A stretch of 24,361 bases of DNA, taken from a virus. Positions within the stretch are counted from its first letter, which is position 1, and every line of letters begins with the position of its first letter. This document shows, in pieces, positions 12,030 to 24,361 of the stretch. A program made the position numbers and the translations under genes. The notes beneath the pieces are model-generated. The model searched no databases and was not told where the DNA came from. It saw nothing but the letters and a program-made list of their open reading frames with translations. The DNA lies in the IMG/VR virus record IMGVR_UViG_3300030107_001686, positions 1 through 24,361 of that record; one strand, given 5' to 3'.

Positions 12030-12060
12030 TTGACTTTTTGTATAAAATGGTTTATAAATA
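12030..12060 (+). promoter_or_regulatory. Composite early/late promoter for hsp20
   Basis: TATAAATA (12053-12060) is the T4 late-promoter consensus recognised by gp55. TTGACT lies at 12030-12035, exactly 17 bp upstream, so TATAAA also forms a host-type -10. The predicted start is about 12066, leaving a leader of roughly 55 bases with AAGGAG before ATG 12120. Confidence 0.75.
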
Positions 12061-15491: not shown

Positions 15492-15882
15492 TTGGACACA
15501 GGAGCAAATGCTGGAAGTTGGTTTGAACGAACCAGATGATTTTCTCAAAGTAAGAGAGACACTTTCACGAATGGGTGTTGCATCACGTAAAGAAAGAAAA
15601 TTATATCAATCTTGCCACATTCTTCATAAACAAGGAAAATACTACATAGTACATTTCAAAGAGTTATTTGCTTTGGATGGTAAGCAAACTAATTTGACTG
15701 AAAATGATATTGCACGCAGAAACACTATTTCTAATTTGTTAAAAGATTGGGGCTTAATTTCTATTATGGGAGACTCATCAAATGTTGCTCCTTTAAGTCA
15801 GATTAAAGTTTTAAGTTTTCGTGAAAAAGATGATTGGGAACTTTGTACAAAGTACAACATAGGTAAAAAGAAAGAGGTTTAA
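15478..15882 (+). CDS. regA: Translational repressor RegA
   Basis: RNA-binding repressor that in T4 blocks translation of many early mRNAs, including gp44 and gp45, by binding at their start sites. Clear likeness to T4 RegA: DDFLKVRETLSRMGVAS, LYQSCHILHKQGKYYIVHFKE, and RRNTISNLLKDWGLISI, with a final KYNIG. Length 134 residues against 122 in T4. I chose ATG 15478 because AGGTGG at 15466-15471 precedes it; a GTG at 15469 falls within that site. It lies inside the end of gp62, the T4 gene order. Its TAA overlaps the ATG of the next gene. Confidence 0.95.
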   Translation: MEEVNWTQEQMLEVGLNEPDDFLKVRETLSRMGVASRKERKLYQSCHILHKQGKYYIVHFKELFALDGKQTNLTENDIARRNTISNLLKDWGLISIMGDSSNVAPLSQIKVLSFREKDDWELCTKYNIGKKKEV

Positions 15883-16523
15883 TGAAAAGGTTTACAAGTC
15901 ATTTTGTCGAACAAAAAGATATAGACTCTTTGAAGTATGATAAGGTGGAAGAAAAGCCAGTTCCTCTTCTTAAAGGTAAGGATTGGAAGAATATTTCTGT
16001 GCCTGAACCTCCAAGAAATAGTAGTCCAGAAGCTCGATTAGAACTGTCAATGATAAAAGCATTAGGGGATAATAGGTCACAAAAAGATATTAACAGTATC
16101 AAAGAGCATGATATGGTTGCAACCTATGCTATTAGAGATTATCTTGAAGAAAATGATTTAGATTACAATAGTGAAGATATATCAAAAATAGTTGAAACAG
16201 GTGCGGGTGTTAGCAGATTTTACAAGAACAAATTTCAAAGAATAAGACCATTCCAGTTAGCAAAAGAATTGGATATAGATATTAATCACATGGATTTTCC
16301 ATCTGACACTATGCAAACACCATCTTATCCAAGTGGTCACACCGTACAATCTCGTTTGGTTGCAGAATATTATATTCGTAAGTATCCACAACATAAGAAA
16401 GGATTGATAGCCGCAGCTGAGGAGTGTGGTCAAGGTCGAGTAAAAGCAGGATGGCACTTTCCCTCTGATCATGAAGTTGGAGTCATGATAGCAGTAGAGA
16501 TTGCACCAATGGTAGAACTATAA
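15882..16523 (+). CDS. PAP2-family phosphatase with capsid-targeting-like N terminus
   Basis: Soluble phosphatase of the PAP2/class A acid phosphatase family, 213 residues. All catalytic motifs are present: K115-x6-R122-P123, P150-S-G-H153 and R186-x5-H192-x3-D196. There is no signal peptide or membrane span, unlike most PAP2 enzymes, so it acts in a cytosol or inside a virion; the substrate is unknown. The N terminus MKRFTSHFVE|QKD resembles the T4 capsid-targeting sequence (MKTYQEFIAE as recalled), which directs proteins into the prohead and is cut after Glu by gp21. Residues 12-60 are a charged linker. It starts in the RegA stop and ends in the start of the ATP-grasp gene (TAATG twice). 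Confidence 0.82.
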   Translation: MKRFTSHFVEQKDIDSLKYDKVEEKPVPLLKGKDWKNISVPEPPRNSSPEARLELSMIKALGDNRSQKDINSIKEHDMVATYAIRDYLEENDLDYNSEDISKIVETGAGVSRFYKNKFQRIRPFQLAKELDIDINHMDFPSDTMQTPSYPSGHTVQSRLVAEYYIRKYPQHKKGLIAAAEECGQGRVKAGWHFPSDHEVGVMIAVEIAPMVEL

Positions 16524-17887
16524 TGGAAAACTTTAAATCTTTTATCACTGAACAAAAAGACGAAAAATATAAAGTTGTTGTTATATCAGCTAACTCTGAT
16601 GAAAAAGGTATTACAACTAAAAGAATTGAAGCAGAGGCAAAAGAGATTAACTATCCATCTTATACAGTTCTTATGGATGGAGCATACACTAGTTTTGAAA
16701 ATGGTCAAAGAACTATTCATAGAGGTGATGATGATAAAGGATTTAAAATACATCCTAGTGATACTATAATTTTTGTTCGTGGAACTACTGAAAGAGATAG
16801 TCATTTAAATTTAATATCTCAACTTCAACGTGCGGGATATTGTGTGGTAAATAGTAGAGAGTGTTTAGAGGTTGCTTCTGATAAATATCGAACCTATTTA
16901 AGATTAAAAGATTTTGGACTCACACAACCTAAAACTGTTCTGGTTCCCACTAAAGATTCGATAGAAAAATCTTTTAATGATTTGGACACAAAATTTCCAA
17001 TTATACTCAAAACACTAAGAGGAGCAAAAGGTGTAGGTGTTCTATTTGTCGAATCAGAAAGGTCTTTAATATCTCTAGTACAACTTTTGTATAAACAAGA
17101 TTCACAAACAGATATATTAATTCAAGAATATATTAAAACTGATTTTGATGTTCGTGTTTTAGTTCTAGGAGGCAAGGTTATTGCCACAATGCAAAGAGAT
17201 GTAGTAGAGGGTGATTTTAGAAGTAACGCATCTTTAGGTGCTAAAGTTAAAAAATATAATTTAACTACTTTAGAGGAAGAGCATAGTATTCGTGCTGCAA
17301 AGGCTGTTGGTGGTATTTTTACTGCTGTTGATTTTATACCATCTAATGATCCAGAAAATAAACCACCATATGTTTTAGAAGTAAACAGTAGTCCAGGCAC
17401 AGAAAATATTGAGAAAGTAAATAGTAAAAATATTGTTAAAGATGTTATTGAATATTTTCAAAATCCAAAAATTAGATATACCGTTCCTACAGAGTGTGGA
17501 TATGAAGAAGTTGTAACAATCAATCCATTTGGAGAAATAATTGCCAAGTTTGATACTGGTAACTCAGCCATGTGTGTTCTCCATGCAGAAGATGTAAAAA
17601 TAAATGGAAAGAAAGTTACTTTTACAACAAACAACAAAACAATCACAACAACCTTTGTTGGTAAATACAAAGCAACTAGTGGTATTGGTGATGATGATCG
17701 TCCAATAGTAGAACTTGAGTTTGAATATGCCGGAACAAATTTTGGTAAAGTTCGATTTGGTTTAGATAATCGTGAAGATATGTCAACTGATGTTTTATTG
17801 AATCGAGATATTATGAAAGTAATGAATGTAATGGTAAACCCTCAACGTAAATATATCATAACCACTAAAATAGTCCTTGACAAATAA
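16523..17887 (+). CDS. RimK-like ATP-grasp ligase fused to a RimB-like retropepsin domain
   Basis: A 454-residue two-domain enzyme. Residues about 110-310 are a RimK-type ATP-grasp: PIILKTLRGAKGVGVLF, ILIQEYIK, DVRVLVLGGKVIATM and the metal-binding LEVNSSPG (E286, N288). RimK enzymes add amino acids, usually Glu, to protein C termini. Residues about 335-450 match the retropepsin-like RimB/zinc-protease family (Pfam PF05618): AKFDTGNSAMCVLHA with D344-T-G, then RPIVELEFEY and a final DVLLNRDIMK. In bacteria these are separate, neighbouring genes. The N terminus MENFKSFITE|QKD is again capsid-targeting-like. The gene is visibly A+T rich. Its last codons contain the -35 box of the gp43 promoter. 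Confidence 0.82.
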   Translation: MENFKSFITEQKDEKYKVVVISANSDEKGITTKRIEAEAKEINYPSYTVLMDGAYTSFENGQRTIHRGDDDKGFKIHPSDTIIFVRGTTERDSHLNLISQLQRAGYCVVNSRECLEVASDKYRTYLRLKDFGLTQPKTVLVPTKDSIEKSFNDLDTKFPIILKTLRGAKGVGVLFVESERSLISLVQLLYKQDSQTDILIQEYIKTDFDVRVLVLGGKVIATMQRDVVEGDFRSNASLGAKVKKYNLTTLEEEHSIRAAKAVGGIFTAVDFIPSNDPENKPPYVLEVNSSPGTENIEKVNSKNIVKDVIEYFQNPKIRYTVPTECGYEEVVTINPFGEIIAKFDTGNSAMCVLHAEDVKINGKKVTFTTNNKTITTTFVGKYKATSGIGDDDRPIVELEFEYAGTNFGKVRFGLDNREDMSTDVLLNRDIMKVMNVMVNPQRKYIITTKIVLDK

Positions 17888-21833: not shown

Positions 21834-21860
21834 CTTTATAACTTGTAACCTTTATAAATA
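21830..21860 (+). promoter_or_regulatory. Composite early/late promoter for the last two genes
   Basis: TATAAATA (21853-21860) is a T4-type late promoter; TTGACT at 21830-21835 is exactly 17 bp upstream. The element begins in the last codons of the glycosyltransferase gene. The leader to ATG 21889 is about 23 bases with a GGAGAG ribosome-binding site. Confidence 0.75.
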
Positions 21861-21888
21861 CTATTAATTAATTCATATGGAGAGATTG

Positions 21889-23292
21889 ATGAGTATTACA
21901 GATTTCGGTAGGCAACTACGGCCAAGAGAACATAAATCCGTCAATCACTTAGAAAAAGTTCAGAGTTTAAGAGAGTTAACCGTTTCTCCAGACTATCAGA
22001 GTAGGGGCAACTTTAATCCATTCTATGTTTTAGATGTAGATGAAACGGATATAAGGTCAGCAGTTGGTGATGGTGAAATTAAATATAAGAGTGTAGATAC
22101 CGGCTCTGGTAATCTTGTCAAGAATTTTGGTGGTAAGTATAATTTTCAGATAAATGTAAATGATGAGGACACTGGTTATTATATTATCGTTCCTAGAAAG
22201 TCCGTAAAGTCACACTTTGGCCAAAAAACGAGAAAAGACTCTACTGCATCATCAAATGTAAATGAGTTTTTGTCAGTTTATTTTCTGGTTCATACGGACT
22301 ATACAGACCCACAAAGTTTTCAATCAGAGATTGGTGGTAAAACTGGAAACACTGGTGTAGTGGATGGTGATGGTAAAGCAGTTACATATGAAGACCTTGT
22401 TGCGTTGATTGATAAAGATGAAAGTGCTGATAGAGATATTGAGATAGGATATCAAAACTCACTTGTAGTAAAAAATGATCTACCAAATACTATTGATACT
22501 TTATTTTGGGTTCCTAGAAGAAAACCAGATGGTATTGGAGATAAAAATCCATCAGATATAATAATTAAATTGTCAGATGGCAACTATGTTGGATACTCAA
22601 ATAAGATTGCAGCTGGTAAAGATGCAACACCAAAGATTAATACAAACATAACAGCATTTTACTCAAAAATGGGTGATACCAGACAGTTGCAAAATATAAA
22701 AAATATGATTGATAAGGCATGGAAAGATGCAGCCGCAACTATAGACAATAAGACTCCAAACGCATATAAAGCAATACAGAAGTATGATATAACCAGAGAG
22801 AAATTTAGTGAGAGTTCATCTCAAAGGTCTTTTGCAACTCTTGCTCGTGCGTTTAAAAAGGATAGACTTAAATTTTATCAGGATGATTTTTATTACAAAT
22901 TTCGTAATAATCTAATATCTGCATTTGCAGACTATATATCAAATTCAAAGAATATGTTATATTTAATTAATACTGTTGGATACTATACATATGATGATCC
23001 AGATGCAACTCCTTGTCCATACAAACTACTTGTTGGTAGCGAGAAAGGATCAAAGATCACAGAGGTATCTTCTGATGAGGATAAAAGACAGATATTTTTT
23101 GCAGATAAGTCTACAGACTTAACAAACACAAAAACAAATTATAATAATAAGGGGCAGTCTTTTGACCTTGCATTTGGATATAGACCACAGAAAAATATTA
23201 TATCTGCTCCTATGACTATTAGAACAAGAGCACAAGGTGGTTGGAGTGGTAAAAGTCTTTACATCACTACAAGTGGATTTAAAGTAAAATGA
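21889..23292 (+). CDS. Late hypothetical protein, possible nuclease-like fold
   Basis: A 467-residue protein of unknown function. The start at 21889 is preferred over the in-frame ATG at 21877, because GGAGAG (21879-21884) then acts as the ribosome-binding site. It is expressed from a late-type promoter, so a virion or late-stage role is likely. One segment, PSDIIIKLSDGNYVGYSNK followed by a Gly/Lys-rich stretch and PKINTN (about residues 229-260), has the D-x(n)-(E/S)-x-K look of PD-(D/E)xK nucleases, but with Ser where Glu is common. No signal peptide, membrane span or tail motif is seen. Its stop overlaps the next ATG (ATGA). Confidence 0.65.
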   Translation: MSITDFGRQLRPREHKSVNHLEKVQSLRELTVSPDYQSRGNFNPFYVLDVDETDIRSAVGDGEIKYKSVDTGSGNLVKNFGGKYNFQINVNDEDTGYYIIVPRKSVKSHFGQKTRKDSTASSNVNEFLSVYFLVHTDYTDPQSFQSEIGGKTGNTGVVDGDGKAVTYEDLVALIDKDESADRDIEIGYQNSLVVKNDLPNTIDTLFWVPRRKPDGIGDKNPSDIIIKLSDGNYVGYSNKIAAGKDATPKINTNITAFYSKMGDTRQLQNIKNMIDKAWKDAAATIDNKTPNAYKAIQKYDITREKFSESSSQRSFATLARAFKKDRLKFYQDDFYYKFRNNLISAFADYISNSKNMLYLINTVGYYTYDDPDATPCPYKLLVGSEKGSKITEVSSDEDKRQIFFADKSTDLTNTKTNYNNKGQSFDLAFGYRPQKNIISAPMTIRTRAQGGWSGKSLYITTSGFKVK

Positions 23293-24361
23293 TTAGTTTT
23301 TTAGAACTCACAGAAGATAAGGGAGGCAAGAACCTTCACCTAGAACATCTAGAGGATGAGATAATCAACTATGGTGTAGATGGTGGTAGAGCTGCAATCA
23401 ACTTTCTACGGTCACTAAGAGATATGCTTGCTGGTGCAAGTCGTAGTTCGGTGAATATGACAGTGAAATGGGATGGAGCCCCTGCCATCTTCGCTGGTAT
23501 TGATCCATCTGATGGTAAGTTCTTTGTTGCAAAGAAAAGTGTATTCAATGTAAATCCCAAGTTATATAAGACAGAGAAGGAAATAGATGATGATTTATCC
23601 GGCACCCTCAACTCCAAGTTTAAAGTTGCATTATCAGAATTTTCAAAATTGGGTATTCAAGGAGTATTGCAGGGCGATCTTCTTTGGACTGATGATATCG
23701 AAACGGAAACAATTGATAATCAAAAATACTATACTTTTCAGCCTAATACTATCGTGTATGCTGCACCTGTTAATAGTGATCTTGGTAGAACATTCGCTAG
23801 GTCTAAAATAGGTATTGTATGGCACACCACATATAAAGGCGATAAGTTGGAGGATATGAAGGCATCATTCGGTGCAGATATATCAAAACTAAAAAAGACT
23901 AGTTCTGTGTGGATGGATGATGCAACATACAAAGATACCTCTGGTAAATCTACCTTTACTGCAAAAGAAACAGAAACAGTAACAGCAATTCTATCTCAAA
24001 CAGGTAAAACCTTTCAAAAGATTAACTCTGGACAACTAAAAAGATTTATTGCACTACAGGATAGTCTTACTGGTAATATGGCTGGTGCATCTCTCAAAAC
24101 TTATAATAACAGTTTAGTTCGACAAGGAGAAAAGATAAAGAATGCTCGTAGTCACGCAATGGGATATCCGACATGGGTAGAGGGACATATACAAAAACAA
24201 ATAGATAAAGCAAAAAGTCCAGCAGGAAAAAAGAAGTACGAAAACATACAAAAAGAAATGGTACGAGAATTTAAAAAATATGTCAAAGTTCTAGAATATG
24301 TCATAACATTCCAAAACTTACTCGTAGATGCAAAGATGCTAATCGTAAAAAAACTAAATAG
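23289..24361 (+). CDS. DUF6267-like protein with KWDG ligase-type motif (3' end outside window)
   Basis: An ATG at 23289 overlaps the preceding stop; the frame stays open for 357 codons to the window edge, so the gene is partial. It resembles a family frequent in T4-like marine phages (DUF6267, from memory). LEHLEDEIINYG (18-29) is followed by VKWDGAPAIFAG, in which K60-W-D-G63 looks like motif I of ATP-dependent ligases/nucleotidyltransferases, then FFVAKKSVFN and VLQGDLLW, compatible with the following strands of that fold. Catalysis is unproven. The N terminus MISFLELTE|DKG is another capsid-targeting-like sequence. Late promoter control fits a packaged protein. Confidence 0.7.
   Translation, partial: MISFLELTEDKGGKNLHLEHLEDEIINYGVDGGRAAINFLRSLRDMLAGASRSSVNMTVKWDGAPAIFAGIDPSDGKFFVAKKSVFNVNPKLYKTEKEIDDDLSGTLNSKFKVALSEFSKLGIQGVLQGDLLWTDDIETETIDNQKYYTFQPNTIVYAAPVNSDLGRTFARSKIGIVWHTTYKGDKLEDMKASFGADISKLKKTSSVWMDDATYKDTSGKSTFTAKETETVTAILSQTGKTFQKINSGQLKRFIALQDSLTGNMAGASLKTYNNSLVRQGEKIKNARSHAMGYPTWVEGHIQKQIDKAKSPAGKKKYENIQKEMVREFKKYVKVLEYVITFQNLLVDAKMLIVKKLN

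What the first reader, a model, noticed from the sequence alone, without database searches (positions are those of the whole stretch)
15882..16562. Capsid-targeting-like N termini on a PAP2 phosphatase and an ATP-grasp enzyme
The two proteins start MKRFTSHFVE-QKD and MENFKSFITE-QKD although their enzyme domains are unrelated. Both match the T4 internal-protein capsid-targeting sequence (MKTYQEFIAE, recalled): length ten, aromatic at 4, hydrophobic near 7-9, Glu at 10 where gp21 cuts. The last gene (23289) starts MISFLELTE. This suggests that a phosphatase and a protein-tailing ligase/protease are packed in the head and injected with the DNA to act before any phage gene is expressed. Neither of the two adjacent genes has its own late promoter, which is a point against.
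Basis: partly seen in the sequence, partly recalled or inferred. Interest (0 to 1): 0.78.

Follow-up and report, generated by a model that had tools for sequence, protein, structure and literature searches.

The report
Head-targeting tags on phage cargo enzymes
A marine relative of phage T4 starts a protein-tailing enzyme, and probably the phosphatase next to it, with the ten-residue tag that T4 uses to load proteins into its head, so these enzymes are probably carried in the particle and delivered with the DNA; in a related phage with published particle proteomics the same tag marks enzymes found in the particle.

Summary
The N termini are as described. The ATP-grasp gene (16523-17887) begins MENFKSFITE|Q and matches the T4 capsid-targeting sequence at all four residues shown to matter in T4 (4 and 7 targeting, 8 and 10 processing). 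In 21 non-redundant phage homologues those positions are the best conserved of the N terminus (mean pairwise identity 0.84; flanks 0.40-0.42), and AlphaFold leaves residues 1-12 disordered outside a RimK fold. The same pattern picks IPII, IPIII, Alt and gp24 (all gp21 substrates) plus one unknown out of 269 called T4 genes. In cyanophage S-CREM2 it picks six of 219 genes, five of them in the published virion proteome. The PAP2 leader (MKRFTSHFVE) is weaker: His at 7, Phe at -3, conserved only in close homologues; but most other PAP2 relatives are modules of long multidomain proteins, often with the NMNAT-like domain found in cyanophage virions. Best reading: head-packaged, prohead-protease-trimmed cargo, probably injected; well supported for the ATP-grasp enzyme, moderate for PAP2. 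Packaging, cleavage and injection were not shown directly. The principle is known from T4; the cargo (RimK ligase fused to a RimB-like retropepsin domain) and the tag as cargo predictor in Kyanoviridae appear undescribed.

The parts
15882..16523 (+). Soluble PAP2-family (class A acid phosphatase-like) phosphatase gene, 213 aa
   Evidence: PF01569 2.4e-12; PDB class A acid phosphatases; motifs K115-x6-R122-P123, P150-S-G-H153 and R186-x5-H192-x3-D196, catalytic residues invariant in alignment A2
15882..15911 (+). Putative capsid-targeting leader MKRFTSHFVE of PAP2 (imperfect: H7, F at -3)
   Evidence: residues 1-10 are the only segment with pLDDT below 50 in the model
16523..17887 (+). RimK-like ATP-grasp ligase fused to a C-terminal retropepsin-like (RimB/PF05618) domain, 454 aa
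   Evidence: PF08443 4.7e-38, PF05618 1.5e-4; Foldseek to RimK 7qys E=4e-23
16523..16552 (+). Capsid-targeting leader MENFKSFITE, predicted prohead-protease cut after E10
   Evidence: F4, F7, E10 nearly invariant; key-position identity 0.84; disordered residues 1-12
16874..17455 (+). ATP-grasp domain (residues 118-311), with invariant D270, E286, N288
17504..17863 (+). RimB-like aspartic protease domain (residues 328-447), DTGN at 344-347
   Evidence: PF05618 in 27/27 homologues; D344-T-G-N347 invariant
23289..24361 (+). DUF6267 gene (runs on to 24521 in the full contig)
   Evidence: PF19782 5e-103
23289..23315 (+). Nine-residue form of the leader, MISFLELTE
   Evidence: 33 distinct homologue leaders keep F4 and L/I-x-E
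21853..21860 (+). T4-type late promoter-like TATAAATA, 17 nt before the gene at 21877 that precedes the leader-bearing cluster (number of matches in the window is not above chance; position suggestive only)

Best explanation
The first ten residues are a capsid-targeting propeptide of the T4 internal-protein type. Residues 4 and 7 dock the newly made enzyme to the prohead core, and the prohead protease (gp21 homologue) cuts after Glu10, releasing the mature enzyme inside the head, from where it leaves with the DNA at infection. The ATP-grasp enzyme (RimK ligase plus RimB-like aspartic protease) would then add, and trim, amino-acid tails (probably Glu) on a host protein, ribosomal protein S6 being the first candidate; the PAP2 enzyme would remove phosphate from a soluble host metabolite or signal. 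Shown: the leader and its selective conservation, and association of such leaders with virion proteins in T4 and S-CREM2. Inferred: packaging, cleavage and injection of these two proteins. Speculative: the host targets.
For: Leader matches the T4 CTS at residues 4, 7, 8 and 10, identified in T4 by suppressor analysis, and at the L/I-x-E cut site (PMC9026906). The same four positions are selectively conserved in 21 non-redundant homologues (F4/F7/E10 at least 90%). The leader lies outside the fold. Pattern control in T4: IPII, IPIII, Alt, gp24 plus gp61.1, 5 hits against 0.41 expected. S-CREM2: 6 hits, 5 in the virion proteome, 0.28 expected; Fisher p=0.0032 for all genes and 2.4e-4 with annotated structural proteins left out. 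The slot just upstream of RimK holds unrelated leader-bearing genes in different phages: PAP2 (window), a CapA/PGA_cap protein (L027, MEQFKSFLNE beside MEQFKSFITE) and a small module otherwise found at the end of a polyprotein (L023). PAP2 domains occur inside long proteins, often with CTP_transf_like/NMNAT-like domains, a class found in cyanophage virions. The RimK-retropepsin homologue of phage YerA41 is annotated 'structural protein'.
Against: No proteomics exists for this phage or for the RimK/PAP2 proteins of close relatives. The PAP2 leader violates positions 7 and -3 and is absent from distant homologues. Both genes lie among replication genes (clamp loader, RegA, DNA polymerase) without a late promoter of their own. 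Two perfect leaders in S-SZBM1 (gp191, gp192) were not reported in its shallower virion proteome. YerA41's virion-annotated homologue lacks the leader. S-CREM2's authors note possible carry-over of abundant proteins through CsCl purification. The contig is a fragment without its own prohead-protease gene.
Confidence: 0.72

Rival explanations
1. Only the ATP-grasp enzyme carries a working targeting leader; the PAP2 N terminus is a chance or decayed look-alike and the phosphatase acts in the cytoplasm during infection.
For: PAP2 leader has H7 and F-x-E, fails the strict pattern and is conserved only in homologues of 81% identity or more, which are alike over their whole length.
Against: F4 and E10 are kept in all the close homologues while residues 5, 6 and 9 vary; residues 1-10 are loose; other PAP2 relatives are built into multidomain proteins with leader-like N termini.
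Confidence: 0.3
2. The leader targets the proteins to the prohead core, but they act in head assembly or stay in the particle and are not injected.
For: T4 core proteins are also gp21 substrates; gp24, a vertex protein, matches the same pattern.
Against: An ATP-dependent ligase with intact catalytic residues has no obvious role in a sealed head; [quoted passage not shown]
Confidence: 0.15
3. Short amphipathic N termini arise often by chance or spread between neighbouring genes with no targeting function; the enzymes are ordinary auxiliary metabolic genes expressed with the replication genes.
For: Location between RegA and DNA polymerase; the two leaders share 11 identical nucleotides, GAACAAAAAGA; looser patterns move towards background (16 hits against 5.3 expected).
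Against: Selective conservation at exactly the T4-critical positions, enrichment over shuffles and agreement with proteomics.
Confidence: 0.12

Closest known systems
T4 internal proteins IPII/IPIII and Alt (CTS, cleaved by gp21)
   Same: Ten-residue N-terminal leader with aromatic/hydrophobic 4 and 7, hydrophobic 8, Glu 10; unrelated cargo behind it
   Different: Cargo here is a RimK-retropepsin enzyme (and a PAP2 phosphatase); the phage is a marine Kyanoviridae-like virus; packaging not shown
Virion-associated enzymes of cyanophage S-CREM2 (SAM hydrolase, APH-like kinase, cytidylyltransferase)
   Same: Same family of phages, same leader; detected in virions by mass spectrometry
   Different: Different enzymes; the passages of the paper that were read do not mention the leader
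RimK / RimB and the RimBK hybrid of bacteria (PMC11957791)
   Same: ATP-grasp ligase and retropepsin-like protease domains with catalytic residues in one chain
   Different: Domain order reversed (RimK first), viral, with a leader; substrate unknown
Class A acid phosphatases (PhoN type), PAP2 superfamily
   Same: Soluble, three catalytic motifs
   Different: Phage leader at the N terminus; often a module of multidomain phage proteins
Polyvalent proteins (injected multidomain phage effectors)
   Same: PAP2, NMNAT-like, Pol-beta-like and kinase modules joined in long proteins that are predicted to be packaged
   Different: The defining paper does not mention PAP2 or cyanophages (PMC5512222); packaging here would rest on a T4-type leader
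Yersinia phage YerA41_066
   Same: 33.6% identical RimK-retropepsin fusion, annotated as structural protein of a myophage
   Different: Different phage type, no T4-type leader; its entry in the proteome table was not checked

Membership tests
T4-type capsid-targeting sequence (RimK enzyme) | N-terminal, about ten residues, aromatic/hydrophobic at 4 and 7 | tested here: met
   F4, F7; at least 90% conserved
T4-type capsid-targeting sequence (RimK enzyme) | L/I-x-E prohead protease site ending at residue 10 | tested here: met
   I8-T9-E10; I/L at 8 in 20 of 21 and E at 10 in 20 of 21
T4-type capsid-targeting sequence (PAP2) | Aromatic/hydrophobic at 4 and 7 | tested here: not met
   F4 but H7 in all close homologues
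T4-type capsid-targeting sequence (PAP2) | L/I-x-E site | tested here: not met
   F8-V9-E10; S-CREM2 gp136 (F-S-E) is a virion protein, so Phe may be tolerated
T4-type capsid-targeting sequence (DUF6267 gene at 23289) | Aromatic 4 and terminal L/I-x-E | tested here: met
   33 of 33 distinct leaders; length 9 or 10
T4-type capsid-targeting sequence (both enzymes) | Protein present in the head, leader removed, protein injected | not testable with these tools
   no proteomics for this phage
RimK ATP-grasp ligase | ATP-grasp fold with metal-binding Asp/Glu/Asn | tested here: met
   Foldseek 7qys E=4e-23; D270, E286, N288 invariant
RimB-type retropepsin-like protease | DTG-type catalytic motif in a PF05618 domain | tested here: met
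   DTGN invariant; PF05618 below gathering score in the window protein but found in 27/27 relatives; fold of this domain alone not tested
PAP2 / class A acid phosphatase | K-x6-RP, PSGH and SR-x5-H-x3-D motifs | tested here: met
   all three, with Gly for Ser in motif 3
Polyvalent proteins | Long multidomain protein delivered at infection | tested here: inconclusive
   PAP2 homologues lie in multidomain proteins of up to 1181 aa; delivery not testable

The most novel reading that the evidence does not exclude
Marine T4-like phages run a general cargo-loading code: a leader M-x-x-F-x-x-[FIL]-[LI]-x-E is placed before interchangeable enzymes and before long polyproteins whose modules are separated by further L-x-E sites, so that the prohead protease both releases and dices a cocktail (RimK-retropepsin, PAP2, NMNAT-like, adenylate kinase, SAM hydrolase, kinases, DUF6267) that is injected to re-tune translation and nucleotide metabolism before any phage gene is expressed.
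Probability: 0.35. Interest if true: 0.8.

Novelty: new variant of a known kind. Interest (0 to 1): 0.64.

Why it matters
Enzymes have repeatedly turned up in cyanophage virion preparations and their discoverers could not exclude contamination. A sequence tag that predicts them turns that into a testable rule and lists further candidates in very abundant ocean phages. If right, a ligase/protease that tails proteins, and a phosphatase, would act on the host in the first moments of infection.

Tried and rejected
Looser leader patterns (variable spacing, optional residue 8) lose specificity: 16 hits in S-CREM2, 6 in virions, 5.3 expected. My own ORF caller chose wrong starts for S-CREM2 gp6 and gp14, so the S-CREM2 test was redone with the annotated coordinates; the T4, Mosig, Melnitz and contig counts still rest on that caller. 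PAP2 tblastn in named phages gave nothing. The genome-contig scan for cellular relatives returned four contigs; L245, L246 and L248 carry phage neighbours (RegA, clamp loader) and L247 a phage-type NMNAT gene, so they look like phage contigs binned into MAGs rather than cellular controls. Foldseek of the whole model shows only ATP-grasp hits in the top 50, so the retropepsin assignment of the C-terminal domain rests on Pfam and the DTGN motif. S-SZBM1 did not serve as a clean second proteome. The S-SM1 and S-SCSM1 proteome tables are in supplements that could not be read.

Full report
WHAT IS THERE. The window is the first 24,361 bases of a 36,313-base IMG/VR virus record. Its gene order (sliding clamp, clamp loader, RegA, then PAP2 and ATP-grasp genes, then DNA polymerase) and best DNA matches (Pelagibacter phage Mosig, Methylophilales phages Melnitz, cyanophages) place it among marine T4-like phages of the Kyanoviridae type. 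The two N termini are exactly as reported: MKRFTSHFVE-QKD (PAP2, 15882-16523) and MENFKSFITE-QKD (ATP-grasp, 16523-17887); a gene at 23289 starts MISFLELTE.

THE PROTEINS. The first is a soluble PAP2 enzyme with the three catalytic motifs of class A acid phosphatases. The second is a RimK-type ATP-grasp ligase (Foldseek to RimK 7qys, E=4e-23) followed by a RimB/PF05618 domain with an invariant DTGN motif. In Pseudomonas RimK adds glutamates to ribosomal protein S6 (RpsF) and RimB, a retropepsin-like aspartic protease, removes them; a natural RimBK hybrid is known, with RimB at the N terminus (PMC11957791). Here the order is reversed.

TEST 1, CONSERVATION. In T4, ten residues of IPIII suffice for head targeting; residues 4 and 7 matter for targeting and 8 and 10 for processing, and gp21 cuts after L/I-x-E (PMC9026906). 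Among 21 non-redundant homologues of the ATP-grasp protein, mean pairwise identity at positions 4, 7, 8 and 10 is 0.84, against 0.42 for residues 11-20, 0.40 for 21-60, 0.61 for the ATP-grasp domain (100-320) and 0.43 for the C-terminal part. F4, F7 and E10 are at least 90% conserved in a 31-member alignment that includes named phages. One of the six search patterns overlapped residues 10-17, so some ascertainment bias is possible; homologues matched only from later residues (L051, L052, L062, L068, L247) show altered leaders. AlphaFold models give pLDDT below 50 for residues 1-12 of this protein and 1-10 of PAP2, with well-folded bodies behind.

TEST 2, POSITIVE CONTROL. The pattern M-x-x-[FYWLIM]-x-x-[FYWLIM]-[LIVMF]-x-E, derived from the T4 literature, hits five of 269 called T4 genes: IPII, IPIII, Alt and gp24, all head proteins cut by gp21 (established T4 knowledge), and gp61.1 of unknown role; 0.41 hits are expected from shuffled N termini. 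It misses IPI, whose leader is longer.

TEST 3, INDEPENDENT PROTEOME. S-CREM2 is a Kyanoviridae cyanophage with a published virion proteome of 52 proteins (PMC10665884). Among its 219 annotated genes the pattern finds six (0.28 expected); five are in the virion list: gp6 SAM hydrolase MKDFDSFLEE, gp14 APH-like kinase MKRFDAFLTE, gp154 cytidylyltransferase MKNFSSFLTE, gp13 MKDLHSFLTE, gp136 MQTFSMFFSE. Fisher p=0.0032 over all genes and 2.4e-4 with annotated structural proteins left out. A stricter form (Phe at 7), written after seeing these proteins, gives 5/5 and should be discounted accordingly. Of the six non-structural proteins with an assigned function in that list, three have this leader at residue 1, and a fourth (the Cas9-like nuclease gp12) has RFASFMAE about 20 residues in. 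A second proteome is not a clean replicate: S-SZBM1's detected cytidylyltransferase starts MRFRQFIIE, but gp191 (MKSFKSFLSE) and gp192 (MKTFKQYITE) were not listed among its 30 proteins.

TEST 4, REUSE OF THE LEADER. The slot between RegA and the ATP-grasp gene holds PAP2 in the window, L007 and L012, a CapA/PGA_cap protein starting MEQFKSFLNE in L027 (beside an ATP-grasp gene starting MEQFKSFITE), and a small module starting MEKFKTFIKRNSWGEITE in L023; in most relatives it is empty. DUF6267, the last gene of the window, shows 33 distinct leaders of 9 or 10 residues, all with F4 and a terminal L/I-x-E before an almost invariant body. Downstream of the window the contig continues with genes starting MKTFLEFINE, MRKFSDLFE (NMNAT-like, 1267 aa), MTTYRKSMREALNE and MKKFKEVLAE. 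Adenylate kinase (MKSFRDFIFE) and other families carry it in further contigs.

PAP2 IN PARTICULAR. Its leader misses two of the defining features (H7; F-x-E) and is found only in homologues of 81% identity or more. Against dismissing it: most other PAP2 relatives examined are modules of longer proteins, typically 550-1181 residues; of six examined with Pfam, five carry further modules such as CTP_transf_like (NMNAT-like), Pol-beta-like, P-loop kinase, HNH or DUF5824. Their N termini include MRFKEFID, MKQFKSIIQE, MSFKSFCNFILE and MRKFREITE. NMNAT/cytidylyltransferase proteins recur in cyanophage virion proteomes. In T4, Asp at position 10 still allows targeting but blocks processing, which may bear on the MRFKEFID forms. 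PAP2 packaging is therefore likely but not established.

EXPRESSION. No TATAAATA lies directly before either gene; the nearest are at 12053 and at 21853, the latter 17 nt before the gene that heads the leader-bearing cluster, and the number of matches in the window is not above chance. The two genes would have to be made from a middle or read-through transcript, which weakens but does not exclude packaging.

MECHANISM AND STATUS. Shown here: the leader, its selective conservation, its disorder, and the correlation of such leaders with virion proteins in T4 and S-CREM2. Inferred: core docking, cleavage after E10, injection. Speculative: tailing of host S6 and the phosphatase substrate. A RimK-retropepsin homologue in Yersinia phage YerA41 is annotated as structural protein; the published study of that phage found 63 particle-associated proteins. 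It lacks the T4-type leader, and I could not check its entry in the proteome table.

NOVELTY. Capsid-targeting leaders are known from T4, and reviewers have suggested they let T4-like phages package diverse proteins. I found no paper in the held library that holds both 'capsid targeting' and 'cyanophage' other than that review, and none on a virion RimK-RimB fusion. I score it as a new variant of a known kind.

Noticed in passing
T4 AF158101 18966-19130 (gp61.1): T4 gp61.1, of unknown function, starts MKTFKEFIKE|DMV, a perfect capsid-targeting leader; it may be an overlooked T4 internal protein.
   Followed up: partly
L070 2880-6680 and 6945-9110 (contig 24879-28682 and 28944-31112): 1267-aa and 722-aa proteins contain repeated EEVELDE-like segments (L-x-E) between modules, as if meant to be cut into pieces by the prohead protease.
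   Followed up: partly
L027 1387-2994 and 2981-4348: A CapA/PGA_cap protein and the neighbouring RimK enzyme carry nearly identical leaders (MEQFKSFLNEQ and MEQFKSFITEQ).
   Followed up: yes
L220 1738-2319: Adenylate kinase (PF00406, 2e-41) with the leader MKSFRDFIFE; its cluster holds 35 leader-bearing ORFs in the fetched loci.
   Followed up: partly
L219 2329-5871; Melnitz-3 MZ577098 65855-66523: P-loop kinase-like modules behind leaders MKQFKSIIQE and MKTFAELQE; in L219 the same protein carries AAA_33/Zeta-toxin-like, PAP2, Pol-beta-like and NMNAT-like domains.
   Followed up: partly
L245-L248 (GTDB MAG contigs): Contigs filed as Thaumarchaeota, Chloroflexi, Saprospiraceae and Alphaproteobacteria look like T4-like phage DNA (RegA, clamp loader or phage NMNAT beside the RimK gene).
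   Followed up: partly
L247 1774-2772: The gene right after RimK is NMNAT-like and starts MNKTYQQFLKE, very close to T4's MKTYQEFIAE.
   Followed up: no
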